Positions 3,699-50,114 of a stretch of 53,086 nucleotides of DNA are shown in pieces; position 1 is the first letter of the stretch; every line of letters starts with the position of its first letter. Source of the stretch: a virus; IMG/VR virus record IMGVR_UViG_3300025423_000028, positions 1 through 53,086 of that record; one strand, given 5' to 3'. The position numbers were made by a program, and so were the translations under genes. A model generated the notes under the pieces. That model was not told where the DNA came from. It searched no databases and saw nothing but the letters and a program-made list of their open reading frames with translations.

Positions 3699-4763
3699 TT
3701 AAATAAATCCATCTTCAAATGGATCTCCAATGTCTTCTTCATCAGTATAAATGTTGAAATCATCAACGCTATCAAACTGATCAAAGAAATCTGGGAATTG
3801 CATGTAACCAACTTCGCATATCCGCATAACCATCATATCTTCTAAAAGGTACAATGATTCTACATCATCATCGCTGTTAATTGCGATGGTGCTTATGTTG
3901 TCATGCCATTCACTTATAAAATCAGTTATCTCATCGTAGTCTCTTACCTCTACCAATTTGACATCACCATAGAGATTATCAAATATTGATTCAGAGTTCA
4001 AACTATCAAGACGAACAGACTTAGATATATATATTGAGCTAAGCATACCATTGATTAGTTCACTACGTTGAGAAAAGTTTATCTTTTCCCGGTACCCGTC
4101 GATGAAACCCTCATACAAAGCAGCCATGTTTTGACTGAACTGTTTGGCATGCTTCTTTTTTATCTTTCCTATTACAAAATAGAACTTAGGGGCGAGTGTG
4201 CCTTCCCCGTAGAAAGAGAAGAAATCAAAACAGATTTGATTAATTATTGTAGGCGTTAAGTGTTCTTCACGAATGATACCGAAGCTGAACTTGTATCCAT
4301 GTTCCCACACCCGTCGATCAACAGATTCATAATCTCGGTATGTTTCCATGGTGTTTTTGTTGCCAAAAACAATTATGTCAGTAGCATTTTCAATCTCTTC
4401 AAGCCACTCCTGATCAAGTTGCATACAGTTATCTATATCTGTATACAGTTTTGTTCTTACGTCCCCAGCGTGGTAGTCAAACACATTTTGGACCATGAAG
4501 CTTTCATCTACATTCGGGGTCTTGACCACGACGCTGATTGGGCCAGCAAGTTTAAGGCAAAGGAAAACACTCTTGGCTAACATCCAGGGTGTATCTCTTG
4601 ACCCAATGATTACAAACTTGCGCTCAGTTTTTTCTACATACTCTTCAAAATCTTTTGGCACTTCTAAGTGCTCTATGATCATTCTGTAGTCGTTCTCTAA
4701 GAACCTGCCGTACTGTTCAAGAATGCTAACGGTATCCAATTCAGGATTGATCACCCATGTCAT
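3699..4763 (-). CDS. LuxC-like acyl-CoA reductase/aldehyde-dehydrogenase-fold protein, catalytic Cys apparently absent
   Basis: The 354-residue protein has a segment order resembling LuxC-type acyl-CoA reductases. It has a nucleotide-fold strand FVIIGSRDTPWMLAKSVFL (residues 48-68), then ISVVVKTPNVDESF, a strand ATDIIVFGNKNTMETYRDYE (about 130), YKFSFGIIRE, and ICFDFFSFYGEGTLAPKFYF (about 190). In LuxC the last block reads roughly D-x-x-x-F-x-Q-x-x-C-L-S-P and carries the nucleophilic Cys; here Thr occupies that place. It may therefore be a non-catalytic or repurposed member. The C-terminus is very acidic. It overlaps the FEN nuclease gene by ATGA. The assignment is inferred from motif order and needs a profile search. 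Confidence 0.45.
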   Translation of the reverse strand: MTWVINPELDTVSILEQYGRFLENDYRMIIEHLEVPKDFEEYVEKTERKFVIIGSRDTPWMLAKSVFLCLKLAGPISVVVKTPNVDESFMVQNVFDYHAGDVRTKLYTDIDNCMQLDQEWLEEIENATDIIVFGNKNTMETYRDYESVDRRVWEHGYKFSFGIIREEHLTPTIINQICFDFFSFYGEGTLAPKFYFVIGKIKKKHAKQFSQNMAALYEGFIDGYREKINFSQRSELINGMLSSIYISKSVRLDSLNSESIFDNLYGDVKLVEVRDYDEITDFISEWHDNISTIAINSDDDVESLYLLEDMMVMRICEVGYMQFPDFFDQFDSVDDFNIYTDEEDIGDPFEDGFI

Positions 4764-5707
4764 CGTAGACCTCTACCAAACCTGCTTGATTCACGCCATA
4801 GATTCCCATGCTTCCAACGATCTTTAATCTGTACGAACCCAAGCTCATCATATAACTTAATAAGCTCTAACTCATTAGGATCGCCGGGTTGGATAGGGTT
4901 GAACTGTAGGTTGCCCAGTGGTGGGAACGGAATATCATTATCAATCCCCAACTCGATAAGCTGTTTAGCTTTCAGCACTGTATCTATGTGCTCAGAAATC
5001 TTTGGGTCATCCAGGCCTAGTACGGTGCTCAAGTCTCCATGCTCAGCAATAAGTTTTGTTGCTTTCTTTGGACCAATACCTGGGATACCCTTTACGTTGT
5101 CACCCTTGTCTCCCATAAGAGCCCAGATTTCAGTTAGTCTCCATGGTTCTACGCCCCACTGGTTCATAACCGCAGCAATGTCGTAGATCTCTTCTTCAAT
5201 GTCTTTAGAACTAATGCTTGGTTTTACAACAATAATGTTTTCTCTGATTAGTTGGTGCATATCGTGGTCAGCACTGACGATTACTACCTTGTCAAAGATA
5301 GGGGCTAGGCTAAGAGCAGCGGTGGCAATGATGTCGTCTGCTTCTACGTCTTGCACCCGCATAAATGGCAAACCATTACGCAAACAAACTTGCATAAAAA
5401 GATCAAGCTGGGGTCTAAACTCTTGAGAAAAAGCATCGTCGATTGGCTTTGATGAGGTCTTCTTATTCCTGTTAGCTTTGTATTCTGGGTCGATCGCCAA
5501 ACGCTTGGAGCTCTTACCTTTATCGAAGGCTATAAAAGCATGTGTTGGTTCGTACTTACGTACCATGCTAGCAACAACGTTGAAAGCACCGAACACTCCC
5601 CAGGTTCCTGAACCATCAGGTGCACTGAGACCTTGACGCATCAAACCCGCGAACGATCTAATAAAACAATTATGTCCATCAAAGATAAGCAACGTTGATT
5701 TTTTCAT
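4760..5707 (-). CDS. 5'-3' exonuclease / flap endonuclease (FEN-type)
   Basis: The 315-residue protein matches the T5 D15 / Pol I 5'-nuclease family. Metal-binding acidic residues sit in LLIFDGHN (residues 6-13), AFIAFDKGKSSKR (about 60), VEADDIIATAAL (about 121), VSADHDMHQL (about 147) and GDKGDNVKGIPGIG (about 205). The last also holds the helix-hairpin-helix that grips duplex DNA. It should remove RNA primers and flaps during phage replication. No DNA polymerase gene is in this window, so it is a stand-alone nuclease. It overlaps both neighbours by ATGA, consistent with coupled translation. Confidence 0.88.
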   Translation of the reverse strand: MKKSTLLIFDGHNCFIRSFAGLMRQGLSAPDGSGTWGVFGAFNVVASMVRKYEPTHAFIAFDKGKSSKRLAIDPEYKANRNKKTSSKPIDDAFSQEFRPQLDLFMQVCLRNGLPFMRVQDVEADDIIATAALSLAPIFDKVVIVSADHDMHQLIRENIIVVKPSISSKDIEEEIYDIAAVMNQWGVEPWRLTEIWALMGDKGDNVKGIPGIGPKKATKLIAEHGDLSTVLGLDDPKISEHIDTVLKAKQLIELGIDNDIPFPPLGNLQFNPIQPGDPNELELIKLYDELGFVQIKDRWKHGNLWRESSRFGRGLR

Positions 5708-6051
5708 GAAGGATTATTACCTTTTCTATATCTAAGTCTGTGAGCCTTAACGGGTTCTTTGAAAGCATCTACTCTTAAAACTATTAATCGAAGCTGCCTG
5801 TCGGTCATTTTATTACACCTTCTCAATGCATGAGCTATCCTAAGTATATCATTTAAGCTATACCTACGATTACCCCCGGCAGTCCTATTAATTTCAATAG
5901 GATCACCGGAGGCATCGAAAAGATATTGCTCTTTCTTTTTGAAAGTGTTTGGCTTAAGATCAAAGAATGCTGCAGCCATTGCTACTGAGAATAGCAAGTC
6001 ATCATCCCTTAGAGGGATTATTCTTTTTGGTCTCTTATAGGGTTCGGACAT
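5704..6051 (-). CDS. MerR-like winged-helix DNA-binding protein
   Basis: The 115-residue basic protein has the order seen in MerR-type N-terminal domains: a helix with FSVAMAAAFFDLKPNTFKK, then a wing ending in TAGGNRRYSLNDILRIAHAL. The N-R-R-Y turn before a helix is characteristic. The C-terminal effector part is short and basic. It may be a regulator or a DNA-binding accessory of replication; the neighbouring FEN gene starts within its stop codon. The start overlaps the upstream gene by 17 bases with only a weak SD, so coupling is likely. Confidence 0.65.
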   Translation of the reverse strand: MSEPYKRPKRIIPLRDDDLLFSVAMAAAFFDLKPNTFKKKEQYLFDASGDPIEINRTAGGNRRYSLNDILRIAHALRRCNKMTDRQLRLIVLRVDAFKEPVKAHRLRYRKGNNPS

Positions 6052-6724
6052 AGAAAGCTGAGCGAACCTTGCCAGGAGTGGTTGCCTTAACTACCTGCTC
6101 CATGCCGATGTTACCAAGCTTGAGTTCCTTCTCGAGGGCTTCCTCGTTCAGCTCACGTGTAACGGTAGTCTCTTCTACAGTCTTGCCATCAGGGTAGGTG
6201 ATGGTTCGGTAGTTGTGGATAAGGTTGGTAACAGAATGGAACTGGTCTTCATCAAGTACCTGCTCGAGCAAGTCAACATCAACTGTGAGCTTACCACCAG
6301 AGACTTCCTTAGAGAGCTTGATGCCATTCTCAGGACTAACAAGGTAACCGCTGTTCGCCAGTGGGTCTTCACCGTTCATAGAAATCTTAAGGTCAATAAC
6401 CTCAGTGGTGTACTTCTTAAGAGCGGACTCACGGCCTTCGACAATGTCCTTAGCCTTGCGCACAGCAAGCAACTCTGCTGCAATCGTGTCGACTTCAAGA
6501 GCACTGAGAGGCTTTACCTCGCTAATGTCAGCGGTGTAAAGGACATCGTTAAGTTCAGCGAACGCCTCGATAGCAACGTTAATTCCTGCTTCGTTTGCGC
6601 TAGCACGACGAATGTCGGCTCGGGTGGGAACCTTAGTAGTTTCCCCAAACGTAGGGTCCGTTACTTCCTGGAGTGGAGTAGTAGCGGGTTGCTTCCTTTG
6701 GGGCATAATGTAGTTTTGTGGCAT
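6035..6724 (-). CDS. Hypothetical protein, first gene of the promoter-headed replication operon
   Basis: The 229-residue protein is not recognised. The N-terminal 40 residues are Pro/Thr-rich and probably disordered. A helical region follows, with SALEVDTIAAELLAVRKAKD near residue 85. The C-terminal half has alternating charged segments and ends GKVRSAFYVRTL. It has a strong SD (AAGGAGACAG) and lies just below a near-consensus promoter, so it is probably an abundant early product. A role in single-strand binding or recombination would fit the context but is a guess. Confidence 0.65.
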   Translation of the reverse strand: MPQNYIMPQRKQPATTPLQEVTDPTFGETTKVPTRADIRRASANEAGINVAIEAFAELNDVLYTADISEVKPLSALEVDTIAAELLAVRKAKDIVEGRESALKKYTTEVIDLKISMNGEDPLANSGYLVSPENGIKLSKEVSGGKLTVDVDLLEQVLDEDQFHSVTNLIHNYRTITYPDGKTVEETTVTRELNEEALEKELKLGNIGMEQVVKATTPGKVRSAFYVRTL

Positions 6725-6753
6725 TTTCTGTCTCCTTACTTGTTGTTATATAG

Positions 6754-6782
6754 AATCTAGCATCCCCGGTTGGGAATGTCAA
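6754..6782 (-). promoter_or_regulatory. Sigma-70-like promoter for the replication operon
   Basis: On the minus strand a perfect -35 TTGACA (6782-6777) is followed by a 17-base spacer and a -10 TAGATT (6759-6754). The predicted start is near 6747, giving a leader of about 23 bases with AAGGAGACAG ahead of the ATG at 6724. It lies right after the stop of the HslV-like gene, so it can uncouple the replication genes from the upstream unit. Confidence 0.7.
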
Positions 6783-6790
6783 ATAGTAAT

Positions 6791-7345
6791 TCATACTTGT
6801 CTTACGAGCAACTCAACGGTGTCAACTTCATACAATGGGCCTCCAACACCGATAGCTGTTACTGTAGCACGATGTGCTGCTTCGATCACATCTTTTTTGG
6901 TCCATTCACCTTCGTTTCCTAGGGCACCTAGAGCTTCGCTTTGGCCTGAGCCAATTGCATATCTTGCGCTAATAGGGATAGTTACACCGAAGTCTTGATC
7001 AATCACAACGAGGGTGCTGTCCCAGGCCATAATGAATGAGCTCTCGTAGTCTTCCATCTTAATACCGTTGTCAATCAAAGCATCACGCATCCGGGGAACT
7101 ACTTCTTTAACGATGAACTCTTCCACTGGAGTAAGGCCTCGGTAGTATGGCCAGGCGACATGATACTTGATGATCTGAAGCTCACGTAGATTGCCCGCAC
7201 CACCAAAGATATATCCCTCATGTACCTCGTCTACCCATACCTTACTGTAGCCATCGCTATCCCTAGTATAGGGTGTAGAGAGCTCAGAGTCACCAACAAT
7301 AACGACACCATTATCAGCGGTCACTGCTGCTGCAATCACGGTCAT
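6791..7345 (-). CDS. HslV/proteasome-like Ntn-hydrolase peptidase
   Basis: The 184-residue protein matches HslV-type proteasome subunits in length and motifs. After Met removal, Thr2 would be the N-terminal nucleophile (MTVIAAAVTADNGVVIVGDS). Asp19 sits where HslV has Asp17 and Lys35 (in GYSKVW) where HslV has Lys33, so the catalytic triad appears complete. The C-terminal half has ARYAIGSGQSEALGAL and a helix WTKKDVIEAAHRAT, matching the HslV AIGSGG region. HslV normally works with the HslU ATPase; no unfoldase gene is in this window. The substrate could be a phage or host protein. Start and stop overlap neighbours, and the promoter for the next operon follows its stop. Confidence 0.75.
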   Translation of the reverse strand: MTVIAAAVTADNGVVIVGDSELSTPYTRDSDGYSKVWVDEVHEGYIFGGAGNLRELQIIKYHVAWPYYRGLTPVEEFIVKEVVPRMRDALIDNGIKMEDYESSFIMAWDSTLVVIDQDFGVTIPISARYAIGSGQSEALGALGNEGEWTKKDVIEAAHRATVTAIGVGGPLYEVDTVELLVRQV

Positions 7346-7467
7346 TCTTCCACCTTTTCGAAATCGCCATCCCAGTTAGTAGCACCTGACATCCATGCAG
7401 CAAATGCTGCACCAAGCTCATCAGGTTGGATGTTGTGCTTTTCTACAAACTTATCGAAGTCATCCAT
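7342..7467 (-). CDS. Small acidic hypothetical protein (41 aa)
   Basis: This short frame fills the space between two larger genes exactly. Its ATG (7467-7465) overlaps the TAA of the previous gene, and its TGA overlaps the ATG of the HslV-like gene. The product starts MDDFDKFVEKHNIQPDEL and ends in an acidic tail. The double overlap is the main evidence that it is real. No function is recognised. It could be an adaptor or partner of the downstream peptidase, which is a guess from adjacency. Confidence 0.65.
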   Translation of the reverse strand: MDDFDKFVEKHNIQPDELGAAFAAWMSGATNWDGDFEKVEE

Positions 7468-7805
7468 TAGTAATAGTCATCCTCATCAGTATTGGGCTTT
7501 TCATCCTCAGGGTCACCCTCAGCAGCATCCATAAGAGCTTCACGGAACTCTTCTGCGGTCTCTTCCTTCGGGGCTTCTTCCTTGGGGGTTTGTTCGTTGA
7601 TCAGTTCTTTGACAACTGAAGCAAATTGTGGACCTACGATCTCATCCCACATAAGTGCAAACTGATGTGGTAGGGCATCTGGCTTGATTTCATCATCAAT
7701 CATTCTAATCTCACAACCAACTTCGGGCTTGATCCAATCCCATTCACCACGGGCATTCTTTACTTGGAGAGTAGCTCCAATGTTTACTGACAACTTCAAT
7801 TCCAT
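7467..7805 (-). CDS. Hypothetical protein with acidic tail
   Basis: The 112-residue protein begins with beta-like segments (MELKLSVNIGATLQVKNARG) and ends in a strongly acidic, Pro/Glu-rich tail finishing EDDYY. A good SD (AAAGGAAG) precedes the ATG. No family is recognised. The acidic tail suggests protein binding or DNA mimicry, but nothing in the sequence decides this. It shares a TAATG junction with the 41-residue ORF that leads into the HslV-like gene. Confidence 0.6.
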   Translation of the reverse strand: MELKLSVNIGATLQVKNARGEWDWIKPEVGCEIRMIDDEIKPDALPHQFALMWDEIVGPQFASVVKELINEQTPKEEAPKEETAEEFREALMDAAEGDPEDEKPNTDEDDYY

Positions 7806-10034: not shown

Positions 10035-11306
10035 TTACGAAGCCTTGAACTTACGGGCTGTGCGTGCCTTGTTAGTAGCTCTGTTAAAAACGTTGATCCA
10101 TTGCTTGCAAATGTTTTCCCAAGTATTTTCTTTCACCCAGGCGTAAGCATTCTCTGCTCGTTCGGCAGCTTCCTCTGGGTGTTCCATGATGTACTTGATA
10201 GTTTCAGCAGCTTCTTCTACATCCATCAGCGGGCGCATACGCTCGTTGTCGTTCTCTTTGATGATCCAGTGTGTTGGTGTGTGACCGCTCTGGACTCTCC
10301 AACCACGGTCTTCACCAAGGATTTCTGGTACTGATGTGTTGTTGGGAGCAATGACTGGAAGCTTCGTTGCCATAGCTTCGGTGATACTCAAGCCCCAACC
10401 CTCACCATGCGTTGTAGTAAGGTAAGCGTCACTAGCGTTGTAAATACCATTCAAAAATTCAATTGGAAATCCGCTGTGTGCACCAAACTGACGTGGGTCT
10501 GGGATAGTGAAATCACTATCAGGGTTTAGACCAATTGATGCGGCCATCTGCATGATGCTACCGCCAAAATCCGTTTCTTGCATATGCATATAAAGGAATG
10601 CGTTCTTCATTCCAATGTTGTGCAGCTGCTTAAGGATCATTAGGCTTCTAGAAACATCTTTACGTCCCTGGTTCCGGTTCACATTGGTGATAATAAAACG
10701 GTCTTGCAAAACTGGTGGGAAGATGGCCTTCCTTGTTTCTTGTTTCTGTTCGGGCGTAAGAGGAAAGAAGTCATTGGTATTGGTACCGTGGTAAATAACA
10801 TCCTGCTTGTCAGCAATCGCTCCAACAAACTTGCGACTTTCATCTTTAGCGTATTTTGTATAGGCGACAGGGAAGTCAAAGCTAGTAACGCATTGCTTAA
10901 CCCATTCTTCACGTGGCGTACAATCGAATGGGTAGTAATAGATAGTCGAGAAAGTATTTGGCTTCGTTCGCTGCAGCTCAAGAATCTGAGGAACAATAGG
11001 CAAAACAATAAAAGTGTCTTGGACAATGAAAACAATGTCATAATTGTTTTGACCAAGGAGGTCAAGAAAAACCTGACGACCGAATACGTCACCGTAAGGG
11101 CCCTGTGTGCGGAGTGCACTGATAGCAGGCCAAAGTCTTCCTGGCCACTTTGAGGTGTCGTATGGGCCACCATCGTAGTTAACACCGACAACATCGATCT
11201 CATAGCTTCCAGTGTTGTTGATCTCACTCATGATGTTCTTCATCACTGTACCGAAGCCAGTACTACACGCGTAGTCACCCCACGCCAATACTTTGATCTT
11301 GCTCAC
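10035..11306 (-). CDS. GT4-family glycosyltransferase
   Basis: The 423-residue protein has a GT-B fold. The N-terminal domain opens VLAWGDYACSTGFGTVMKNI, where the Gly-rich loop binds acceptor. The C-terminal domain has NRNQGRKDVSRSL (about 210) and the donor-binding GEGWGLSITEAMATKLPVIA (about 302). It should transfer a sugar from a nucleotide-sugar donor to an unknown acceptor, perhaps virion proteins or host envelope glycans. The start is GTG with GGAGATAG upstream. It forms a unit with the GT2 gene before it and the GT17 fragment after it. Confidence 0.82.
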   Translation of the reverse strand: MSKIKVLAWGDYACSTGFGTVMKNIMSEINNTGSYEIDVVGVNYDGGPYDTSKWPGRLWPAISALRTQGPYGDVFGRQVFLDLLGQNNYDIVFIVQDTFIVLPIVPQILELQRTKPNTFSTIYYYPFDCTPREEWVKQCVTSFDFPVAYTKYAKDESRKFVGAIADKQDVIYHGTNTNDFFPLTPEQKQETRKAIFPPVLQDRFIITNVNRNQGRKDVSRSLMILKQLHNIGMKNAFLYMHMQETDFGGSIMQMAASIGLNPDSDFTIPDPRQFGAHSGFPIEFLNGIYNASDAYLTTTHGEGWGLSITEAMATKLPVIAPNNTSVPEILGEDRGWRVQSGHTPTHWIIKENDNERMRPLMDVEEAAETIKYIMEHPEEAAERAENAYAWVKENTWENICKQWINVFNRATNKARTARKFKAS

Positions 11307-11308
11307 AA

Positions 11309-11998
11309 CTATCTCCAGTCTTTAGGACTTAACGTACTATCATTATAGGGTTTATTGTATACTTCATGCAAGTCTTTCTTCGCACTACCCCATTTTCTAA
11401 CATAATATTCGCCAGACTTTAGTGAGTTTATAGGTAGTGTTAACTTCTTAGTTGATTGGTGCCTAAGGTGCGCGTATGGAACATCCGTTTGAAGTGTTTT
11501 ATAACCAAGCAATTTAATGCGGTATTTCATGTCAGCGTCTTCCCACCATGCTGGGTCGAAGTTTTCATCAAATGTGCCACATAGATCAAAAAAATCTGGT
11601 CTAATAGCGAAGCAAGAAAAGCTTTGGTCTTCTGCATTCTTATTGCCAGAAAACTCTTCGTCTTCTATGAAAAGAATGTCTGTTGGGTCTGCTAACTCAT
11701 CCAGCACGTCAACTGGGAATGCCATGACAAAGTTATCTACCATGGCAAGAGTCTCTACAGCCAAGCGATCGATAGTGCCTGGTGCAAAGATTGCGTCATC
11801 GTTGCTAACAATAATGACATCACAGTTATCAAAGATAGCCTCACGAATACCTTTGTTCCAGGCTGCCGCCAATGGCACTTGGTAACGATACTGTGGGCGA
11901 ATATAAATCTTAAGTTCGTTATTACTCTTAGCTGAATAGACCAGATCAATAGCTTGATCAAAATTATTTAAAACTGGGACAACGAGTCCGATTCGCAT
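11309..11998 (-). CDS. GT2-family glycosyltransferase
   Basis: The 229-residue GT-A protein opens MRIGLVVPVLNNFDQAIDLV. It carries a DxD-like VIIVSNDDAIFAPG near residue 62, and NFDPAWWEDADMKYRIKLLG near 150, the usual acceptor and base region of GT2 enzymes. It likely works with the adjacent GT4 enzyme on one glycan. The ATG lies inside the end of whiB (31-base overlap) with a good SD (AAGGAAGA), so it is coupled to the regulator. Confidence 0.8.
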   Translation of the reverse strand: MRIGLVVPVLNNFDQAIDLVYSAKSNNELKIYIRPQYRYQVPLAAAWNKGIREAIFDNCDVIIVSNDDAIFAPGTIDRLAVETLAMVDNFVMAFPVDVLDELADPTDILFIEDEEFSGNKNAEDQSFSCFAIRPDFFDLCGTFDENFDPAWWEDADMKYRIKLLGYKTLQTDVPYAHLRHQSTKKLTLPINSLKSGEYYVRKWGSAKKDLHEVYNKPYNDSTLSPKDWR

Positions 11999-12366
11999 TC
12001 TTCCTTCTTCCTTTTAGGGCCGCGCTTCTTTTTACTTGACTTGATTGCTACTGCCTGCTGTTGTTTTGTTATTTCGGCAACAACTTCTAGTGTAGATTCG
12101 TAGTCGATATCAATCAACTTAATACCAAGTTCCTGGCGTAGCACTCTACGTTGCTTAGTGCTAGTACCTGCCCAGTAACCATAATCTTCATAAAGCAATG
12201 CATGGTTCAAACAATTATCGTAAACGGGGCATGTAGTGCATAGCAACAATGCTTCTTTATCTGGGCTTTTACCTTGTCCAGGGTAGAAAGCATCGTATTT
12301 TTCAGCTGATAGCGCAGAACAAGAAGCGTCCTTTTGCCAGCTATAATCAATGGTTGTATTTTCCAT
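11968..12366 (-). CDS. whiB-like: WhiB-family iron-sulfur transcriptional regulator
   Basis: The 132-residue protein has the four cysteines of a WhiB cluster (C16-like in DASCSAL, then LLCTTCPVYDNC) and the turn GYWAGTS in place of GVWGG, followed by a basic helix KQRRVLRQELG. The C-terminus adds a long Lys-rich tail (KKKRGPKRKK). WhiB proteins are restricted to Actinobacteria and their phages; phage members can alter host transcription. The ATG has no SD and lies 20 bases after a GC-rich structured element, so translation may be regulated. An in-frame TAA just upstream fixes the start. Confidence 0.88.
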   Translation of the reverse strand: MENTTIDYSWQKDASCSALSAEKYDAFYPGQGKSPDKEALLLCTTCPVYDNCLNHALLYEDYGYWAGTSTKQRRVLRQELGIKLIDIDYESTLEVVAEITKQQQAVAIKSSKKKRGPKRKKEECESDSLSQF

Positions 12367-12719: not shown

Positions 12720-13073
12720 CTACCATGGGGCACAATAACCCTGTTGATCCGGCATAGCCATGTGGTATGCACGCAGGAACTTTGTCCCTATTTTAATCTG
12801 TGTTGCTCTACTACTTGGTTTTGCAACGCTTCCCCCGAATTGAATCCAATTCGGTCTATCAATTCCCAAAGCATCTGGGTACCAATAACTAAAATAATTC
12901 CAGTTGCCACCCTCTTCACAGGTAGCTATCCTTTGCCATTCGGCAATAACTACTGCGCTAAGTACAACCCTAGCAGCTACCAACACATGATGTTTTGGTG
13001 TTGCCGAGGCCGTTAAGGGAACTGCAAAAATACTTAATGATAATACAATTGTAATTATAGCTTTCTTTAACAA
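12720..13073 (-). CDS. Secreted Rpf-like transglycosylase domain protein
   Basis: The 117-residue protein has a signal peptide (LLKKAIITIVLSLSIFAVPL ending near TASATP) and a domain WQRIATCEEGGNW...LGIDRPNWIQFGGS like resuscitation-promoting factors and related actinobacterial muralytic domains. The Glu of CEEGGNW corresponds to the catalytic acid. It would cut peptidoglycan outside the membrane, perhaps aiding lysis or cell-wall remodelling. The start is TTG with AGGA ten bases upstream. A stronger SD further upstream drives a 10-codon ORF in the same frame that ends at TAG. It is not next to the endolysin. Confidence 0.7.
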   Translation of the reverse strand: MLKKAIITIVLSLSIFAVPLTASATPKHHVLVAARVVLSAVVIAEWQRIATCEEGGNWNYFSYWYPDALGIDRPNWIQFGGSVAKPSSRATQIKIGTKFLRAYHMAMPDQQGYCAPW

Positions 13074-40616: not shown

Positions 40617-40930
40617 TAGAACCCCATTGCTAAAAACATGTTGCCATTCGAAGCTGGGCTAATAGCGTATCCATAAACTGCTGGGACTAAATAGGCAGAG
40701 CTGGATTGTGGAGAAACATATGTTTGATTAGTTAGTGTTGAAGGTGCTAAATAATAGTCAAGATATGAAACTCTAGAAGTACCAGAACGTGCACCAAATG
40801 TGGCGTTGTAGTTGGCGTTTGATGCGCCCTCCACCGTGCCTGGTGAGGTCTTGTGACCCAGTTTGCCGAGAAACCAACCGACGAAGCCTGCGCCGAAATA
40901 GGGGCGCGTGTAATTCTTGCGCGAGGTCAT
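40616..40930 (-). CDS. Chimeric fibre-associated protein, C-terminus paralogous to 22099-22776
   Basis: Residues 43-104 (ATFGARSGTSRVSYLDYYLA ... YVSPQSSSAY ... PASNGNMFLAMGF) match the C-terminus of the 225-residue protein at 22099. Residues 1-42 (MTSRKNYTRPYFGAGFVGWF...) are unrelated and GC-rich. The junction near 40810 coincides with the edge of a GC-rich patch. The gene is therefore probably a fusion of a foreign 5' end with the end of a resident gene. Whether it is functional is unclear. Confidence 0.55.
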   Translation of the reverse strand: MTSRKNYTRPYFGAGFVGWFLGKLGHKTSPGTVEGASNANYNATFGARSGTSRVSYLDYYLAPSTLTNQTYVSPQSSSAYLVPAVYGYAISPASNGNMFLAMGF

Positions 40931-42060
40931 GACAGACCGACCCAGATGGGCGAGCCGCTAACTGCTGGGGTTCCCGAGATGGTCGTGGGGAGCGAGGTAA
41001 AGCCGGTCAACGTACTGCAACGCTGGTTGAGGGTGTTCGCCGCGACCGTGTTGGGGCCGACGTTGATGGCTGCCGCCGTGGTCTGGTTGTAGGCGAACAG
41101 GTGGCTTGCCGCCGTCGACGTAATTATGCCGAGCCAGTAGACACCCGAGTTGGTCGGGGTGTAGGCGGTGCCGAAACTGCCGGAAGCCTGCGTGTTGCTC
41201 GGTGGCGTCGTGGCGATGTTACCCGTGACAGCCAACTGCGTCGTGGCATTGTAGAGGCCGACCGTGACGTAACTGCTACCGACACCCGTGGCGATGATGA
41301 CATAGACGTTGGAGTAGGTCACGCCCGCTTGGAGGTAGACCGCCATGAAGTAGACCGTGCTGGTCGCCAGCGTTAGACCACCCGTAGCCACCGTGTTTGT
41401 TGCTGCGTCATACGTCCATGCAGTTAGACCGTTGAGCGACGGTGGGGTCATGGCGACTGGGGTGGCGTAGGAGAGCGATGAGCCGTTTGAGGTCAACACC
41501 GTGCCGTTAGAGCCGACGGAGGTGAGGTTCGTGCCACCGTTAGCAACTGCGAGCGTTCCGGTTACGTTGCTGGTAAGCGACAGCGTTCCAATGAGGTTTG
41601 ACAAGTTGTTGCTGTTTGTCATGTACCAATTGCCGCCGTTGTAGTTCACAAAACTCAACGTGCCATAGGCGGACAAGGTGTAGGTGGTAACGCTTGAGCC
41701 CGAACCGAGTGGGTACATAGAGTTAGCAAAACTCAACGTAACTGGGTTGGCGCTGTTGTTAATGAGTGTCCAGGAGGAACCGTCAATGGGGTTGCTGGGT
41801 GTCGAAAGCGTTTGACCTGCGGCTCCGGTGAATACCGTTATCTCGTTGCGTCCGACCGTTGCCGTTGCCGAGCGCAGGACAAGGTGGTTCGAGATAGTGG
41901 TAGACCAGCCAGCCGTTGAGCCGGTGTAAACCCACACGGTTGCGGTCTGGTCAACAACAAAGTCACCAACCGTCCACGTTCCTGAAGCTGGTGCGCCGTT
42001 AACCGTGCCACCGACGAAGCGAGCGCCAGCCGTTGCACCCGTGAGACCAGTAGACGAGGA
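40810..42060. other. GC-rich, foreign-looking patch within the fibre genes
   Basis: This stretch is visibly richer in G and C than the AT-rich sequence on both sides and uses GC-ending codons. It covers the C-terminal third of the 1015-residue fibre and the first 42 codons of the next gene. On both sides the sequence returns abruptly to the AT-rich repeat style. Recent exchange with a GC-richer phage is the simplest reading. Confidence 0.6.
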
Positions 42061-43974
42061 ATATTGACCAGTAATACCACTTGTGACTGCAACGGTACCA
42101 CTAAACGTAGCATTGCCAATCTGTGTAGCTGTGCCGGTTACAGTGATGTTACCGCCTACGTTTAAGTTGCCTGCATCCATTTCACTACCAACGGTGATGG
42201 CACCTGTCACGGTCAATGATCCAGATATTGTTCCACCAGATGTCGGAACAAAGTTTCCTGTCCATGCTGCTGTGGCTCCATTAGATACGAGAGCAGTACC
42301 GCTTGTACCAATTGCTAAGTTAGTGTAGACAGATCCATTACCAATAAGCATTGAACCACTTGTAGCAGTAAGCTGAGAGCCCGTACCACCGTTATTGACA
42401 GAAAGCTTACCGGCAGAAGTGTTTGACATGTTGTTGGAGAACAACATGTTCCAGAAAGTACCGTTATATACAAAGAAAGACATTTCAACACCAGCATTCT
42501 GCGTTGAATATGTTGTGGTTCCGCTTGTCGAGTTAAATGGAGCAATGGTAGTTCCATTGCCGTTCAATGTAATTGGACCACTAGCTGGGTGAGCATAAAT
42601 ACCATAGGTAGAACCAGATGGTGGGTTTGATGGCAAATAGAATGTTAAACCACTGCCTGTAGTCCAGGTGAACTCATCAACTGTGCATGGTGATCCTGAT
42701 GTTGTGCTCGTAGTACGCACAACGAAGTTATAACCATTAACTAGTACACCAGAAGGTACTGTTGATCCATTGAAGGTGATTGCACCGCTAGCAGTTAAAC
42801 CACTAAGGACTGTCAGAGCACCAGAGATTGTGCCACCAGAACGTTGTAAAGCATCGTAAGCTACACCACTAACGGTGTTAAGATTGCCTGAAATTAGAGC
42901 GATAGAGCTCGTGTGTCCAGTAACAATACCAGATGTTGTGTTGTATGCACCGCTCAAAGTAACGAACTGACCTGAAAGCGTAGCAAGATTAGCAACAGTC
43001 CCTGTTACCGTTGAGTTGGCATTGATGATGGCATTAACAACACCGCTAACTGCTGTGGTGCCAACTAAGGTTGCAGCTACAGCTCCTGTCCCAGTTGCAG
43101 TAACGTCACCAGTAAGTGAAGTGATTCCTCCACCGCTTCCTCCACCGCTAACCGTTGCTGGCACCCATTGTGTGCTATTCCATACGATAGCTTGCCCGCT
43201 GGTAGCAGTTACACCACCAATGATGGGGCTGGTGATGTTCAATGCACCACTGATCGTACCGCCTGATCTTTGCAGAGCTCCATATGCCACGCCGCTAACA
43301 GTATTGAGGCTACCCGACGTAGAAGCGTATGAACCGCTTAGCGCTACAAACTGACCAGAAAGAGTTGCCAAACTACCTGACAAGCTGACAATATTTGCTT
43401 CATCTACAATTTGTTTGTTAGCAACGTATTCCAGCTGAATTGAAATGTTATTGATGTTTGTCTCATCAACAATTTGATTATTCGATATGGTTGTAATTTG
43501 GCTACCCTGGCCACTTACGGTGCCACTAAGGGCTATGTAGTTGTTAGTTAGCATAGACGCTGATGTGTTGAATTGAAGATCATCTACAGCTGTTCTAACA
43601 GGGAATACATTGAATCCCGATGAAGTGCCGATAGCGTGAGCGTAAGGAGTCGTTCCATCCCAGCCACGTCCATTGTATGTGCCATCAGTCCATACAGGGA
43701 TTACTGCGTTTGCACCAATAGTGATAGCACCTGAAGCACAAAGGATCTTCTCTTCCGTGCCCAAGCCGTAGTCAACTACAAGGGTGAAAACACCACTAGT
43801 TCCAAGGGGGTTAGTAGTGGCAGTGCCGCTCGAGCTTACTTCGTACCAACCTGCTGTATTTGCCAAGGTCAATGCTTGACCGCTTGTGTACCCACTGATA
43901 AGCGTTGCAGAAAGGTACGTGGGTGTAGCAGCACCTGCGAGAGATCTAGGAGTTGTGTAGTCTGGGTAAGCCAT
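40927..43974 (-). CDS. Long tail fibre, chimeric C-terminus
   Basis: The 1015-residue protein has an N-terminal domain (YTTPRSLAGAATPTYLSATL), a coiled-coil-like region with repeats of VALSGSYASTSGSLNTVSGV type, and modules GGTISGALNITSPIIGGVTA shared with two other fibres. The C-terminal third (about residues 640-1015) lies in GC-rich DNA and has its own globular domain with WTYDAATNTVATGGLTLATS and ends SGSPIWVGL. This is the expected place of the receptor-binding tip. It overlaps the next gene by ATGA. Confidence 0.7.
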   Translation of the reverse strand: MAYPDYTTPRSLAGAATPTYLSATLISGYTSGQALTLANTAGWYEVSSSGTATTNPLGTSGVFTLVVDYGLGTEEKILCASGAITIGANAVIPVWTDGTYNGRGWDGTTPYAHAIGTSSGFNVFPVRTAVDDLQFNTSASMLTNNYIALSGTVSGQGSQITTISNNQIVDETNINNISIQLEYVANKQIVDEANIVSLSGSLATLSGQFVALSGSYASTSGSLNTVSGVAYGALQRSGGTISGALNITSPIIGGVTATSGQAIVWNSTQWVPATVSGGGSGGGITSLTGDVTATGTGAVAATLVGTTAVSGVVNAIINANSTVTGTVANLATLSGQFVTLSGAYNTTSGIVTGHTSSIALISGNLNTVSGVAYDALQRSGGTISGALTVLSGLTASGAITFNGSTVPSGVLVNGYNFVVRTTSTTSGSPCTVDEFTWTTGSGLTFYLPSNPPSGSTYGIYAHPASGPITLNGNGTTIAPFNSTSGTTTYSTQNAGVEMSFFVYNGTFWNMLFSNNMSNTSAGKLSVNNGGTGSQLTATSGSMLIGNGSVYTNLAIGTSGTALVSNGATAAWTGNFVPTSGGTISGSLTVTGAITVGSEMDAGNLNVGGNITVTGTATQIGNATFSGTVAVTSGITGQYSSSTGLTGATAGARFVGGTVNGAPASGTWTVGDFVVDQTATVWVYTGSTAGWSTTISNHLVLRSATATVGRNEITVFTGAAGQTLSTPSNPIDGSSWTLINNSANPVTLSFANSMYPLGSGSSVTTYTLSAYGTLSFVNYNGGNWYMTNSNNLSNLIGTLSLTSNVTGTLAVANGGTNLTSVGSNGTVLTSNGSSLSYATPVAMTPPSLNGLTAWTYDAATNTVATGGLTLATSTVYFMAVYLQAGVTYSNVYVIIATGVGSSYVTVGLYNATTQLAVTGNIATTPPSNTQASGSFGTAYTPTNSGVYWLGIITSTAASHLFAYNQTTAAAINVGPNTVAANTLNQRCSTLTGFTSLPTTISGTPAVSGSPIWVGLS

Positions 43975-43984
43975 CAGTTATTTC

Positions 43985-44521
43985 CTAAGAAAATTGGACA
44001 ATTACTTTAAACAGAACGCTATCTTCAGGAAACAAATGGATACCAGCAAAAGTACTTTTGATATACATGTTGCTATTTGGCAACACTACTGGAGTAAGCG
44101 AAGGAATAATACTTGTCACCTTACTAGAGCCATTTGTAGCCCTAATTACATTGAAGCTATTGGTCCCATTACCAGAAATTACAGTCATTACTTCTGAAGT
44201 GACTTGGATATTGAACGGGAACGTAGCTGGAAAAAGGTTGTAACCGCTGACAGTAATTGTGGTATCTGTGGGGTTAACTTGATTTGACAATGAACTAACG
44301 GTTGAACTAGAATTACTATCAAAAAGGCCGACCTCGGTAATTGAGTAGAGATTGTTCGCAGTCAACAAACCAGTAGATATAAAAGTATCTCCAGAAGTAG
44401 AGGTAGTAAAAGCGCTGGTCGTACCAGAAATAACTGTTCCTACGGGGTTAAAAAGAGATATGTCTGTTGCTGAAGCGGTACCACTACCCGTTCCCCAACC
44501 AATATAAAAATTATTTGCCAT
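43985..44521 (-). CDS. Virion protein, fibre-associated
   Basis: The 178-residue protein is beta-rich, with NNFYIGWGTGSGTASATDIS at the start, ANNLYSITEVGLFDSNSSST in the middle and LFPEDSVLFKVIVQFS at the end. The pattern fits a compact structural protein, possibly an adaptor between the long adhesin before it and the fibre after it. It lies six bases after the adhesin gene. Confidence 0.5.
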   Translation of the reverse strand: MANNFYIGWGTGSGTASATDISLFNPVGTVISGTTSAFTTSTSGDTFISTGLLTANNLYSITEVGLFDSNSSSTVSSLSNQVNPTDTTITVSGYNLFPATFPFNIQVTSEVMTVISGNGTNSFNVIRATNGSSKVTSIIPSLTPVVLPNSNMYIKSTFAGIHLFPEDSVLFKVIVQFS

Positions 44522-44526
44522 ATTAT

Positions 44527-47500
44527 CTAGCCCAATCTTTGCGTGTAATACATCGGGAAATTGCTTGTAAGTACGTTATTGTTGGTACCTTTGAGTGTTG
44601 AATTCAAAGCGTATATTGGATTACCACTGGCAGTAACACCATTCAAGACAACGTAATTCATAGTTGCAACGGATGCTACTGATAATGTTCCACCATTTAT
44701 GATCAATGCACCGTCACGGTTAGAGATTGTGTTCCATACAGAACCATATTTTGATGATTCATTGAATGAATAAGTGCCAAATGGAACAGTTGTAAAATTC
44801 AAATCGAGCACAGGACCAACGTATGTTCCTGATGGTGGTTGGGTTGTTGTACCAGAAGTGCTTGAAGTTGAAGGCCACCATGCAGTAATTATTGATGCTA
44901 ATGCATAAAAATCCTGGTCAGGGCCTGGAAAATCACCAACTGTTGCAGTCGGGACACCACTACCTATTACCGAGAACGTAGTACCACTAACGACAGCATT
45001 GCTAACAACATAAGATCCGTTATATGGATTGCTAGCTGGGTTAACACCGCCACTAAACCCAGTCACGTTAACATTTGCACCAATGTGGAAATCGTTAGTG
45101 TTTGCAAGCGGACTTACAAGTTGGTAAATATAAGTATATGCTCCAGAAGTAATCGTGTAAGTTGCTCCTGAAACAGACACAGAGCTACCAATATAGTAAG
45201 GTGATGGATTATACCCGCTAATTCCGTTGTATACTTGTGCTCTCAGGAACTGACCAAAGTTGGTTGATCCAGCAATAATAGCTGGTTTTTGCCCCATTGT
45301 AATCGACCCAGTTGCTGATGTCACTGAAACCGAATATGGCCACGTTATTGGTAAATCACCAGTGCCTGGATCTGGAGAATAGTTAAAAGTAACGACTCCA
45401 GTGCTTTGCGATCTTGTTACATTAACCCAACTAGCATTTGTTGGGATGCTATTAAGTGATAGAGTGCCACTTACAGTATTGATGATCCCAGTTGAATCTT
45501 TATAAGAAAAGTATAAACCTAAGTTATTCCCTGTGGCTGGATTAAGTCCGAATGTCCAGCCATCTGCCCCAGTGCTATCTTTGATAATTGCTGTAGCAGT
45601 AGTTGGCTGCCATGAAACTGGATTTATAAACGTACGAACATCTACGTCGCCATTTGTTTGATACTGAGAAGCATTGCCAGAAACATTCGTGATAGTGTTA
45701 TCAAATATGTTACCATATGTTCTAAAGCTGTTTGCATTTAGATAGTTTATGGTTTGCTTTGTACCTTGGAAACCTACGGTTGTCATTGGGTAAAAAAGCA
45801 ATGAATTAAATGAATTGTTACCGTTAAAATTAACTGTCCAACCAAATCCATTTGTTTGTTGCAATGGCGAAGGGCTAGGTGAGGTTGCTGTCTTTGGACC
45901 AATAAAATTAGTAAATGAATTGTTCCCACTAATTGTAAAAGTTGTATATGCAGTGTATGACGCACCGCTAGGCATAGTCAGTGAATAATATTGTTGGTTA
46001 CCGCCATAAAAAGTTGAGGTACTTAAGTTAGTTAATTGAATTGATCCATAGTTACTTGTTAGTGCACCTGATGAAGTATTTTTAAACGTCCAAGTACCTG
46101 AAACAGCCCACGCTTGGGGGTTAGATGAAGTGCCACCCATAATAACTTTACCGCTAGGTCCAACGGTAAAGTTTTGCAAAACAACTGAGTTAATATTGGG
46201 ATTATTAGCAGATAGTGTTCCACTATTAACTGTTAAAGCTAATGCGGTAGAGAAATTGTCTTGCAACATTACAGTTGATCCGGGGTATAGATCAATATAA
46301 GTAGCACGCGGCCATTTATATCCATTTGAGGTAATTGTATTGACATTGCTACCAAGCAAAATCCAGTTAGGACTGCCCGTAGTTTTTGACCCCAATGAAA
46401 TACTACTAAAGATAAAATAGTTGGGGTTAAAAAAGTTTAAAGTCCCTGTAAAAGTTGTTGCATTAAACCCAGGGATTAATGGTGGATCTACTTTGATTGT
46501 TGCGTTCGATTTAGCTGAATTTTTGTCAAAAACAGCAATATCTTGTGGCAATGGATTGCGAACTACCCCACCGTTTCCGCTAGTAGATGTATACCATTTG
46601 GCGTCAGACCAGTTTCCTGAAGTTACTGCTGCGTTGTAAAAATACCCTGATATAGAAGGACTAAAAGTAATACCACTATTACCGCCGCCATCTCCCCAAC
46701 CGGTTGCATCTGGTGAAGACCAGTTAGCAACTCCTGATACTTTAATATTTTGAAAAATAACATATTTGATTGCAAGACTACTTGCTGTAATTGTTGATGG
46801 TGTGTATGACCAACTAGGTGTATACACAATAGATTGATCACTGGCGATATAAGTTGGTACGTGTCCAACCCCATTAGTAAATTGATTGATGCCAGATACG
46901 GTGAAAAGCCCATTGATTACGAGGTTTGATCCACTAGAGATAATTAAATTATTGCCTGATGTAGTGGTTGACAGTGTTGGAGAGAATGTCAGGTTGGAAA
47001 GAGGGAATGTAGAACCTGTACCAGTAGCATCATAGAAATACAAAGGGCCTTGACCACTATACGTAATCGGAGGCAATGTAGTTGATGTGCCGTTATAACT
47101 AACCACAGAACCATAAGGGAGCGTATTGCTAAGAACGATTGATGCGCCTGCTGAGTATTGACTTGTAACACTTCCATTAATTGCAATAGTTGGAGTTAAG
47201 TCTCCAGATGATGTTGGACCGCTATTGATAACAATATTGGAAGACCCAAAATTAATAGTAGATAAGTTATTTGCAGTTAACGTTGATAATGTACAGCTAT
47301 TGTTGTTAGTTGTAAAATTACCATTGGTATCTAAATAAAGATTACCTATATAAGAGCCACTCAACGATAAAGAAGAGTTATTATATATGCTAATACTACC
47401 ATTGCCAAGGTTAATGTTTCCGGAAGTTGTCACTGGTGCCGAAAGCCCATAAAAGGTAACAGAGTCGCCATTCACTGGGAATACAGATGCAATACCACCT

Positions 47501-48519
47501 GATGAGTATCCGCTACTAGGAACTGAAGTGGGAAATATTTGAAAACCACCGCTAGTGGTTCCTACTATCTGTTGGTTTTGGTTGTAATCATTTGGAGTCG
47601 TTCCAGTGATTACAACGGTTTGGCCAACTACAAAATTATTAGATCCTAGATATGTTACAGTTGGGGAAATTGAAGGGTTACCACCTGACACATAAAGGTC
47701 AGTTACATAGTTGTTATATGCAACATAAAAACTTGATGCTGTACAAGAAGTAATTGGCAGAGCCGTAATGTTAAAAGCTGTCCCAGATCCAGCATTTCCT
47801 GTAGCACCAGTTACAGTAACCAATTGACCTGGGATGAAGTTGTTGTTACATATATATAGTGCACCACCATTAGAATCAGCAAACCCACCAGAACCAGAAA
47901 TGCCAGCAAAAGCTGACGATGTAGACTGCACACTAAAAGAGGAAGCAGTAACTGAAGTTACCACCCAGTTATCACTAAATATAGTCGGAGATGTTTCAAA
48001 TACGCTTATTGGCTCTCCGACCACAAATGGATTGGCATACCCACCGGCTGTATTAAAAGTAATTGTATATGGACTGCTACTACCGCTTACAGTGATGTTA
48101 TTAATGTTTACAGTGCTTTGCCCATAAGCAAAACCACCAGAACTATAACTATCACCAGAAACTGTTGCGTTTGTAGTAAAAGAAGATGTTGTTACACGCG
48201 TTATGGTTGCAAAGACGTTAAACAACCCACTTGTTGAGACAATGTTTTTTGTTCTTACAAGTTGTCCAACTACAAAAGGATTGGTTCCACTAACAAAATA
48301 AGTAGGGGTTGAATTGGATAAATTTGCGCCACTGATCGTAGCGGAGACACCAATGTTATAAGAAATAGCATTGGTAATTGGACCACCCGTATACGTAACC
48401 GGGTTGTTATAGTATGCACCAGTAATGGTTACGTCAGGATAACCCCAGTTAACCTGTGGTTGATTCCAGTACCAAGTGTTAGGGTACCCACTAACAATTT
48501 GAAAAGCGTAGTCAGCCAT
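44527..48519 (-). CDS. Large adhesin-like virion protein with repeat domains
   Basis: The product has 1330 residues from the ATG at 48519, chosen because TAATG joins it to the previous gene; the frame is open eight codons further. The N-terminal 350 residues hold about four copies of a module of form NPFVVGQLV...TVTG...VTTSSFTTN, and a fifth copy (HIGANVNVTGFSGGVNP) lies near the C-terminus. The middle is rich in Asn/Ser/Gly beta strands of the beta-helix kind (GNLYLDTNGNFTTNNNSCTL). It is probably an extended host-binding appendage. Confidence 0.65.
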   Translation of the reverse strand: MADYAFQIVSGYPNTWYWNQPQVNWGYPDVTITGAYYNNPVTYTGGPITNAISYNIGVSATISGANLSNSTPTYFVSGTNPFVVGQLVRTKNIVSTSGLFNVFATITRVTTSSFTTNATVSGDSYSSGGFAYGQSTVNINNITVSGSSSPYTITFNTAGGYANPFVVGEPISVFETSPTIFSDNWVVTSVTASSFSVQSTSSAFAGISGSGGFADSNGGALYICNNNFIPGQLVTVTGATGNAGSGTAFNITALPITSCTASSFYVAYNNYVTDLYVSGGNPSISPTVTYLGSNNFVVGQTVVITGTTPNDYNQNQQIVGTTSGGFQIFPTSVPSSGYSSGGIASVFPVNGDSVTFYGLSAPVTTSGNINLGNGSISIYNNSSLSLSGSYIGNLYLDTNGNFTTNNNSCTLSTLTANNLSTINFGSSNIVINSGPTSSGDLTPTIAINGSVTSQYSAGASIVLSNTLPYGSVVSYNGTSTTLPPITYSGQGPLYFYDATGTGSTFPLSNLTFSPTLSTTTSGNNLIISSGSNLVINGLFTVSGINQFTNGVGHVPTYIASDQSIVYTPSWSYTPSTITASSLAIKYVIFQNIKVSGVANWSSPDATGWGDGGGNSGITFSPSISGYFYNAAVTSGNWSDAKWYTSTSGNGGVVRNPLPQDIAVFDKNSAKSNATIKVDPPLIPGFNATTFTGTLNFFNPNYFIFSSISLGSKTTGSPNWILLGSNVNTITSNGYKWPRATYIDLYPGSTVMLQDNFSTALALTVNSGTLSANNPNINSVVLQNFTVGPSGKVIMGGTSSNPQAWAVSGTWTFKNTSSGALTSNYGSIQLTNLSTSTFYGGNQQYYSLTMPSGASYTAYTTFTISGNNSFTNFIGPKTATSPSPSPLQQTNGFGWTVNFNGNNSFNSLLFYPMTTVGFQGTKQTINYLNANSFRTYGNIFDNTITNVSGNASQYQTNGDVDVRTFINPVSWQPTTATAIIKDSTGADGWTFGLNPATGNNLGLYFSYKDSTGIINTVSGTLSLNSIPTNASWVNVTRSQSTGVVTFNYSPDPGTGDLPITWPYSVSVTSATGSITMGQKPAIIAGSTNFGQFLRAQVYNGISGYNPSPYYIGSSVSVSGATYTITSGAYTYIYQLVSPLANTNDFHIGANVNVTGFSGGVNPASNPYNGSYVVSNAVVSGTTFSVIGSGVPTATVGDFPGPDQDFYALASIITAWWPSTSSTSGTTTQPPSGTYVGPVLDLNFTTVPFGTYSFNESSKYGSVWNTISNRDGALIINGGTLSVASVATMNYVVLNGVTASGNPIYALNSTLKGTNNNVLTSNFPMYYTQRLG

Positions 48520-50114
48520 TATACGATTCCAACAATGCGCCAAGCTCCACTAGGGTTAATCGTTAGATCCCAAACAAATGCGTAATCTACACGACCTGAA
48601 GAGGGTGGAACTGTAGGCAGTGCAATGCTAGAAGGCTCAAAACTTCCCGCTGTCCAAGCAGAACCAGGAATGTTAAATGGCCCTGCAATATTGGTGAAGG
48701 CAATGCGTATTGTTTTTTCACCTGATACTGTATTGCTTGCAAATGCCATGGATGTAACTGAAACGCCTTGTCCGCTAACTAATACTACATCATAATTAGC
48801 AGGGTTTACAGAAGATAAAGGTGTTGCTGAGCCCGGGACTGTAATTACACGGGGATTACCATCGATAATACCGGTGACAATTCTTCTTACGTTTGCTGTG
48901 TCGTTTAGGATTGGAGCTGGGTAAGTTCCAATCAAGTCACCAGCGGCAGAAATGCCACTGATAGTGGTAAGAACGTTATTTCCGCTTACAGTCAAACCAC
49001 TTGCTACAGCAAGGTTGCCAGTGATAGAACCACCGGCTGATGGCAACGCTGCATAAGCTACACCACTAACTGTATTCAAGTTGCCTGATGTAACTGCGTA
49101 TGATCCACTCAAGGCTACAAACTGGCTGGTTAGCGTGGTTACATTGCCGCTAGTTACAACATACTGGCCACTAAGAGTTGTCAAGCTCCCTGAAGTAGAT
49201 ACGTACTGGCCACTAAGTGTAGCCAAATTAGAATTGGTAGTCGTTATATTCCCACTAATATTAGTAAGATCAGTTACAAGACCAGTAACTTGGTTTTTGG
49301 TAATCTGAATACCAGTTGCTGTTACCGCACCGCTAACGGTCAAACCGCTGACAACTGTTAAGTTGCCTGATATTGTTCCACCTGAGATTGGCAAGAAATT
49401 GCCTGATGTCCCACCAGAAATTGTAATTGGTGTCCACGCAGTGTTATTCCATACCAAGCTTTGACCGCTAGCTGGAGTAGAAGACGAAATGGGGTAGCCT
49501 TGTAGAGTAGTGGCATTGGTACCACTGGCTCCACCACCACTAATTGAGATTGGCAACCATTGCGTGCCATTGTAAACTATTGACTGGCCAGAAGTTGCTG
49601 CTATGCCACCAACATAAGGACTGGTGAAATATACACCACCTTGGAACGTTGAAGAACCAGTAACCGTTAAGTTACCAGTGATAGTTCCACCAGAACGTTG
49701 TAAAGCACCGTAAGCTACACCACTAACGGTGTTAAGACTACCGCTTAGAGAAGCAATGTTGCCTGTTGCGGTAGTTACAATCCCGCTAGTAGTGTTATAC
49801 TGACCAGATAACGTAACAAATTGACCGCTTAGGGTTGTTAATGATCCACTAAGGTTGGCAATATTATTGGCGTTCGTATTCAGTGCGCCTGAAATATTTG
49901 TTAAGTCAGAAGTAAGATTTGTAACTTGGCTTTCAGTGATTTGGATACCAGTTGCAGTAACTGTTCCACTAACAGTTAAACCTGAAACAACTACTAAGTT
50001 GCCACTAATCGTGCCGCCAGTAAGAGGAAGATAGTTGCCTGATGCTGTACTAAAATTACCCAAAAATGCTTGAACCAGGTTACTTCTGGTAGCACTAGTC
50101 AATACCGTGTTCAT
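48519..50114 (-). CDS. Tail fibre protein with SGNL/TLSGQ repeats
   Basis: The product is 531 residues from the ATG at 50114, which has AAAGGAAG at good spacing; the ATG one codon upstream is too close to that SD. Repeats such as LATLSGQYVSTSGSLTTLSG, and modules SGNLTVVSGLTVSGAVTATG shared with the fibres at 22777 and 40927, suggest a trimeric coiled/triple-beta fibre. The C-terminal 150 residues form a distinct domain ending WDLTINPSGAWRIVGIV. Confidence 0.68.
   Translation of the reverse strand: MNTVLTSATRSNLVQAFLGNFSTASGNYLPLTGGTISGNLVVVSGLTVSGTVTATGIQITESQVTNLTSDLTNISGALNTNANNIANLSGSLTTLSGQFVTLSGQYNTTSGIVTTATGNIASLSGSLNTVSGVAYGALQRSGGTITGNLTVTGSSTFQGGVYFTSPYVGGIAATSGQSIVYNGTQWLPISISGGGASGTNATTLQGYPISSSTPASGQSLVWNNTAWTPITISGGTSGNFLPISGGTISGNLTVVSGLTVSGAVTATGIQITKNQVTGLVTDLTNISGNITTTNSNLATLSGQYVSTSGSLTTLSGQYVVTSGNVTTLTSQFVALSGSYAVTSGNLNTVSGVAYAALPSAGGSITGNLAVASGLTVSGNNVLTTISGISAAGDLIGTYPAPILNDTANVRRIVTGIIDGNPRVITVPGSATPLSSVNPANYDVVLVSGQGVSVTSMAFASNTVSGEKTIRIAFTNIAGPFNIPGSAWTAGSFEPSSIALPTVPPSSGRVDYAFVWDLTINPSGAWRIVGIV

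What the first reader, a model, noticed from the sequence alone, without database searches (positions are those of the whole stretch)
6791..7345. Phage HslV/proteasome-like peptidase with complete catalytic triad and no visible unfoldase
Thr2, Asp19 and Lys35 line up with HslV Thr1, Asp17 and Lys33, and the AIGSGQSEALGAL region matches the family. HslV normally needs HslU, but no AAA+ unfoldase is near; the adjacent AAA+ protein (1783-2583) is a DnaC-type loader. A tiny acidic 41-residue ORF is coupled directly upstream and could be a partner. The peptidase may process phage proteins or degrade host factors.
Basis: partly seen in the sequence, partly recalled or inferred. Interest (0 to 1): 0.65.

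Follow-up and report, generated by a model that had tools for sequence, protein, structure and literature searches.

The report
Phage-encoded proteasome-like peptidase subunit
A virus that probably infects actinobacteria carries a small relative of the proteasome's cutting subunit with an apparently intact active site and no matching protein-unfolding motor in sight; this is one more member of a phage protease family that is already catalogued but apparently untested.

Summary
Window 6791-7345 (minus strand) encodes a 184-aa proteasome-fold Ntn protein. It matches phrog_1040 'peptidase HslV family' (5.9e-12). A profile of it and 19 relatives hits HslV (2e-8), BPH (2.7e-7) and proteasome beta among solved structures. 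The AlphaFold model (pLDDT 85.9) aligns to BPH, HslV, proteasome beta and Anbu (Z about 17). Thr2, Asp19, Lys35, Gly48 and Ser133 fall on HslV Thr1, Asp17, Lys33, Gly45 and Ser124. The gene is under strong purifying selection and keeps its place in related phage contigs.

It is proteasome-like but not HslV proper: HslV's basic pore residues Arg89/Lys90 are acidic here, and no HslU/ClpX gene was found, even in a 122.8-kb relative. Phage-borne proteasome homologs without unfoldase were described in 2021, and similar genes are annotated in Arthrobacter, Microbacterium, Escherichia and Pantoea phages. The 41-aa upstream ORF is a real gene but occurs only in the closest clade, so it is a weak partner candidate. 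Most likely: an ATP-independent Thr peptidase that forms rings and trims unstructured proteins during infection (activity, ring and substrate inferred). New member of a known kind.

The parts
6791..7345 (-). 184-aa proteasome-like (Ntn, HslV/BPH-related) peptidase; predicted nucleophile Thr2 after Met1 removal, Asp19, Lys35, oxyanion Gly48, Ser133
7342..7467 (-). 41-aa acidic ORF, overlaps the peptidase start (ATGA); real coding gene in the close clade only (dN 0.14, dS 0.82 against L001), possible accessory protein
6633..6794 (-). 53-aa ORF immediately downstream, overlapping the peptidase stop; conserved in the close clade, function unknown
7467..7805 (-). 112-aa acidic protein upstream, syntenic with the peptidase in L001, L002, L011-L013, L015-L017 and L053
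6035..6724 (-). 229-aa DUF7242-like protein downstream, syntenic with the peptidase
4760..5707 (-). 5'-3' exonuclease (replication gene) in the same run of genes; places the peptidase in the replication region, not among head genes

Best explanation
The gene encodes a phage proteasome-like Thr peptidase subunit. Shown by computation: proteasome-fold monomer with Thr/Asp/Lys catalytic residues, oxyanion Gly and active-site Ser in register with HslV; strong purifying selection; a stable place among replication-region genes. Inferred: host methionine aminopeptidase removes Met1, so Thr2 becomes the N-terminal nucleophile without a propeptide; subunits assemble through H1-H4 into a single or double ring, as HslV and BPH do; the chamber admits small or unstructured polypeptides without a dedicated AAA+ unfoldase and cuts them by the proteasomal mechanism. 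Its job in infection is probably removal or trimming of selected phage or host polypeptides (early takeover or turnover), not head maturation.
For: Family and fold. Active-site mapping, with Thr, Asp and Lys present in every relative inspected except that the Asp is followed by different residues. Selection. Synteny with DnaB, DnaC, exonuclease and DUF7242 genes. Similar non-structural contexts in other phages (ThyX/MazG, RNR/DHFR, dCMP deaminase/PhoH). No HslU/ClpX-type AAA_2 over cut-off in three contigs and no HslU tblastn hit across G001. Acidic instead of basic pore residues. BPH precedent of proteasomal chemistry without a known unfoldase (epoxomicin bound at Thr1): PMC5777263.
Against: No activity, ring or substrate has been shown here or, in the papers read, for any phage member. 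BPH itself was inert on standard peptides and casein (PMC5777263), so a specialised substrate, a missing activator or a non-protease reaction is possible. The host is unknown and could supply an unfoldase. In one distant phage group the gene sits directly behind the portal gene.
Confidence: 0.55

Rival explanations
1. It works with an AAA+ unfoldase after all: either a host ATPase or the phage's own MoxR-type AAA+ (with a VWA-like neighbour), which lies elsewhere in the larger relatives.
For: AAA_5/MoxR-type ATPase over cut-off in all five larger records with the peptidase that were searched (G001, G003, G004, DSL-LC01, Pumpernickel); in G001 it is followed by a VWA-like gene and in DSL-LC01 by a gene annotated 'cobalamin biosynthesis protein'.
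Against: Not linked to the peptidase gene; the complete 41-kb Arthrobacter phage Pitbull has the peptidase and no AAA_5 match; such pairs are common in large phages (own knowledge); HslV's basic pore cluster, important for its activity, is not conserved.
Confidence: 0.2
2. It is not a general protease but a highly specific enzyme (protein ligase, amidase or single-site processing enzyme) like the monomeric connectase, acting on one phage or host protein.
For: Proteasome-like homologs include connectase, a ligase (PMC8665760), and BPH was inert on standard substrates. The strongly conserved single-copy gene fits a specific substrate.
Against: The model keeps both H1 (53-62) and H2 (74-92), which connectase lacks, and shows no long helical insertion; nearest matches are mostly ring formers.
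Confidence: 0.15
3. It is the phage's head-maturation protease.
For: In the ct2KA10-like group the gene directly follows the portal gene; no S78 prohead protease was found in G001, G003 or G004.
Against: In the window and close relatives it lies among replication genes. DSL-LC01 has the peptidase away from portal and terminase and also an S78 match. Other prohead protease families (S14, S49, S77) were not searched.
Confidence: 0.07
4. Catalytically dead or decaying relic.
For: None beyond the lack of a test.
Against: Catalytic residues conserved, dN far below dS, position kept in many contigs.
Confidence: 0.03

Closest known systems
phrog_1040 'peptidase HslV family' phage proteins (e.g. Escherichia phage PBECO4 gp096, Pantoea phage AAS21 gp060, Microbacterium phage Pumpernickel gp135, Arthrobacter phage Pitbull gp77, Actinomycetia phage DSL-LC01 WJZ48484)
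   Same: Same kind of protein: MT/VT start, Asp, Lys and GSG-type motifs; phage-encoded; no adjacent unfoldase in the stretches viewed; mostly non-structural neighbourhoods
   Different: Only about 26-32% identity to DSL-LC01, Pumpernickel and ct2KA10 members; own clade (47-86% identity to the window protein) with specific small flanking ORFs
BPH (betaproteobacterial proteasome homolog)
   Same: Top structural match (Z 17.7, 3.3 A over 164 residues; tied with others), no propeptide, no known unfoldase, acidic pore-side residues
   Different: 16% identity; ring symmetry here unknown; BPH has a longer acidic pore loop; BPH is bacterial
HslV (ClpQ)
   Same: Catalytic residues, Thr right after the initiator residue, subunit size
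   Different: Basic pore residues Arg83/Arg86/Arg89/Lys90 become Leu/Asn/Glu/Asp; no HslU found; about 20% identity
PPH and AAH (phage-associated proteasome homologs of Fuchs, Alva and Lupas 2021)
   Same: Phage-borne, no AAA+ partner, related to HslV/BPH (group I)
   Different: PPH is about 140 residues and lacks helix H2; this protein is 184 residues with H2.

Membership tests
Proteasome-like Ntn family (Pfam Proteasome / Fuchs 2021) | Proteasome fold: beta-sheet core with flanking helices H1-H4 | tested here: met
   AF2 pLDDT 85.9, pTM 0.84, Z about 17 to BPH, HslV, proteasome beta and Anbu
Proteasome-like Ntn family (Pfam Proteasome / Fuchs 2021) | Thr/Ser1, Asp17, Lys33 and oxyanion Gly47 (Gly45 in HslV) | tested here: met
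   Thr2, Asp19, Lys35, Gly48 aligned with HslV; Thr2 and Asp19 invariant in 20 sequences
Proteasome-like Ntn family (Pfam Proteasome / Fuchs 2021) | Pfam PF00227 above gathering score (a convenience cut-off, not a biological definition) | tested here: inconclusive
   13.8 bits vs 22.4 for this sequence; 13 of 20 alignment members match at E<=0.1, best 2.8e-9
PHROG 1040 'peptidase HslV family' | Profile match over most of the domain | tested here: met
   E 5.9e-12, residues 1-159
HslV sensu stricto | HslU partner ATPase | tested here: inconclusive
   None in the window, G001 or G002, but contigs may be incomplete and the host is unknown
HslV sensu stricto | Basic pore cluster Arg86/Arg89/Lys90 | tested here: not met
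   Asn93/Glu98/Asp99; role of the cluster from PMC5777263
HslV sensu stricto | Hexameric double ring | not testable with these tools
   Only monomer prediction offered
BPH | Heptameric double ring and long acidic pore loop | tested here: inconclusive
   Linker after H2 (93-102) is acidic but short; oligomer not testable
PPH | About 140 residues, second helix H2 missing | tested here: not met
   184 aa with helix 74-92; definition from PMC8665760
AAH | Clusters with alpha-proteobacterial/actinobacterial AAH sequences | not tested
Connectase | H1/H2 missing and two-helix insertion between S3 and S4 | tested here: not met
   H1 and H2 present, no such insertion; definition from PMC8665760
Pup-like tag (considered for the 41-aa ORF) | C-terminal GGQ/GGE (own knowledge) | tested here: not met
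   Ends VEE, VE or VEQ

The most novel reading that the evidence does not exclude
This actinophage clade carries its own subfamily of proteasome homolog: a self-assembling, ATP-independent chamber with an acidic entrance, activated or guided by the translationally coupled 41-aa protein, that selectively destroys or processes host or phage polypeptides during takeover.
Probability: 0.1. Interest if true: 0.65.

Novelty: new member of a known kind. Interest (0 to 1): 0.28.

Why it matters
Phage-borne proteasome homologs are widespread yet, in the papers read, none has an assigned substrate or activity. A compact, strongly conserved member with intact catalytic residues, and annotated relatives in phages of culturable hosts (Arthrobacter, Microbacterium, Escherichia), makes the open question of what phages do with a proteasome subunit testable. 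By itself this locus adds a divergent clade and evidence that the gene is retained; it does not reveal a new kind of system.

Tried and rejected
HslU/ClpX search: PF07724 found nothing over cut-off in the window, G001 or G002; E. coli HslU tblastn against the window and all of G001 gave no meaningful hit. The second AAA+ of G001 proved MoxR-like (AAA_5) with a VWA-like neighbour, not HslU. PADLOC: the peptidase matches no defence model. Plasmids: no relatives of the Pumpernickel protein. Bacterial genomes: the scan found a single distant locus, so AAH membership stayed open. The 41-aa ORF as general partner: rejected because absent in L016, L017 and L053. The 41-aa ORF as Pup: rejected, no GGE/GGQ. 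Head protease: S78 not found in close relatives, but gene position argues against that role. NCBIfam gave no match for the peptidase. The initial forward-strand translation of 6791-7345 is not the gene; the gene is on the minus strand.

Full report
What is there. The ORF is on the minus strand of the window, 6791-7345, 184 aa with an ATG start. Its start overlaps the stop of a 41-aa ORF (7342-7467) by ATGA, and its stop overlaps a 53-aa ORF. The window is a 53-kb virus record. A WhiB gene at 11968-12366 (PF02467, 1.5e-13) indicates an actinobacterial host, since WhiB is described as exclusive to actinobacteria and their phages (PMC10611076). The habitat was not tested.

Family. The protein matches phrog_1040 'peptidase HslV family' (5.9e-12) but is too divergent for Pfam's cut-off. 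I collected relatives in IMG/VR and in named phages. A profile of 20 sequences (A4) finds only HslV, BPH and proteasome beta chains among solved structures at E<=0.01. The AlphaFold model has pLDDT 85.9 and pTM 0.84; only loop 22-31 is poor. It aligns to BPH with Z 17.7, and to HslV, proteasome beta and Anbu with Z about 17, residue 2 on residue 1. These scores differ by less than 1 and so count as ties. Against predicted viral proteins it matches many phage proteins, including one named HslV and one from Gordonia phage Daredevil.

Active site. Aligned with E. coli HslV, Thr1, Asp17, Lys33, Gly45 and Ser124 correspond to Thr2, Asp19, Lys35, Gly48 and Ser133. Thr2 and Asp19 are invariant in the profile set; a Lys at the expected place before the S3/S4 hairpin is seen in every sequence inspected (read by eye). 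Met-Thr means that Met1 should be removed by methionine aminopeptidase (established knowledge), exposing the nucleophile without a propeptide.

Not HslV proper. HslV's pore cluster Arg86/Arg89/Lys90, whose mutation severely lowers activity (PMC5777263), is Asn93/Glu98/Asp99 here, and Arg83 is Leu90. No AAA_2 (HslU/ClpX) domain exceeds its cut-off in the window, G001 (122.8 kb) or G002 (80.6 kb), and E. coli HslU finds nothing in G001. BPH is the precedent: no propeptide, acidic pore, no known unfoldase, Thr1 reactive with epoxomicin, yet inert on standard substrates. Fuchs, Alva and Lupas (PMC8665760) described phage-borne homologs PPH and AAH and found no AAA+ partners. PPH is excluded by length and by presence of H2; AAH could not be compared. 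Their statement that no actinobacterial phage encoding AAH was known may be overtaken by phages such as Pumpernickel, Pitbull and DSL-LC01, but whether these are AAH is untested.

Context. DnaB, DnaC, exonuclease, DUF7242 and the acidic 112-aa gene keep order with the peptidase in L001, L002, L011-L013 and L015; part of the order is also seen in L016, L017 and L053. Duplicate contigs exist among these (L011/L012, L013/L014/L015 and L016/L017 have identical peptidases), so independent lineages are fewer. In other phages the gene lies beside ThyX/MazG, RNR/DHFR/thymidylate synthase, dCMP deaminase and PhoH, or WhiB: mostly non-structural neighbourhoods, although two genes near the PBECO4 copy are annotated as virion proteins. 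One clear exception, the ct2KA10-like group, has it right behind the portal gene.

Selection and partners. dN is 0.08-0.12 against close relatives while dS is above 1.4 or saturated. The 41-aa ORF is also coding (dN 0.14, dS 0.82 against L001) but has no counterpart in L016, L017 or L053, where other small ORFs precede the peptidase. A MoxR-type AAA+ gene is present in all five larger peptidase-bearing records searched, unlinked, and absent from the complete 41-kb genome of phage Pitbull, so an obligate pairing is unlikely.

Mechanism. I favour an ATP-independent Thr peptidase assembled from identical subunits that handles unfolded or small proteins in the replication phase. Fold, active-site register, conservation and context are shown; Met removal, ring assembly, proteolysis and substrate are inferred.

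Verdict. Real, well supported, and a new member of a known but uncharacterised kind.

Noticed in passing
L010:2959-5228 (-) (G001 about 116958-119227): MoxR-type AAA+ (268 aa) followed by a 487-aa VWA-like protein in the large relative; AAA_5 also in G003, G004, DSL-LC01 and Pumpernickel.
   Followed up: partly
L004:6171-8507: In ct2KA10-like phages the HslV-like peptidase gene directly follows the portal gene, the usual place of a prohead protease.
   Followed up: partly
window 6633-6794 and 6035-6724 (-): Two conserved ORFs overlap by about 90 bases in different frames; dS of the 53-aa ORF is correspondingly low (0.23-0.47).
   Followed up: partly
window 12720-13073 (-): Weak match to a transglycosylase-like domain, PF06737 just under its cut-off, near the WhiB gene.
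   Followed up: no
window 40927-50117 (-): Several very long tail-type proteins with repeated LTVSG / SGNLTV segments.
   Followed up: no
window 10035-11998 (-): Two adjacent glycosyltransferases; the first also matches PF20706 'GT4-conflict'.
   Followed up: no
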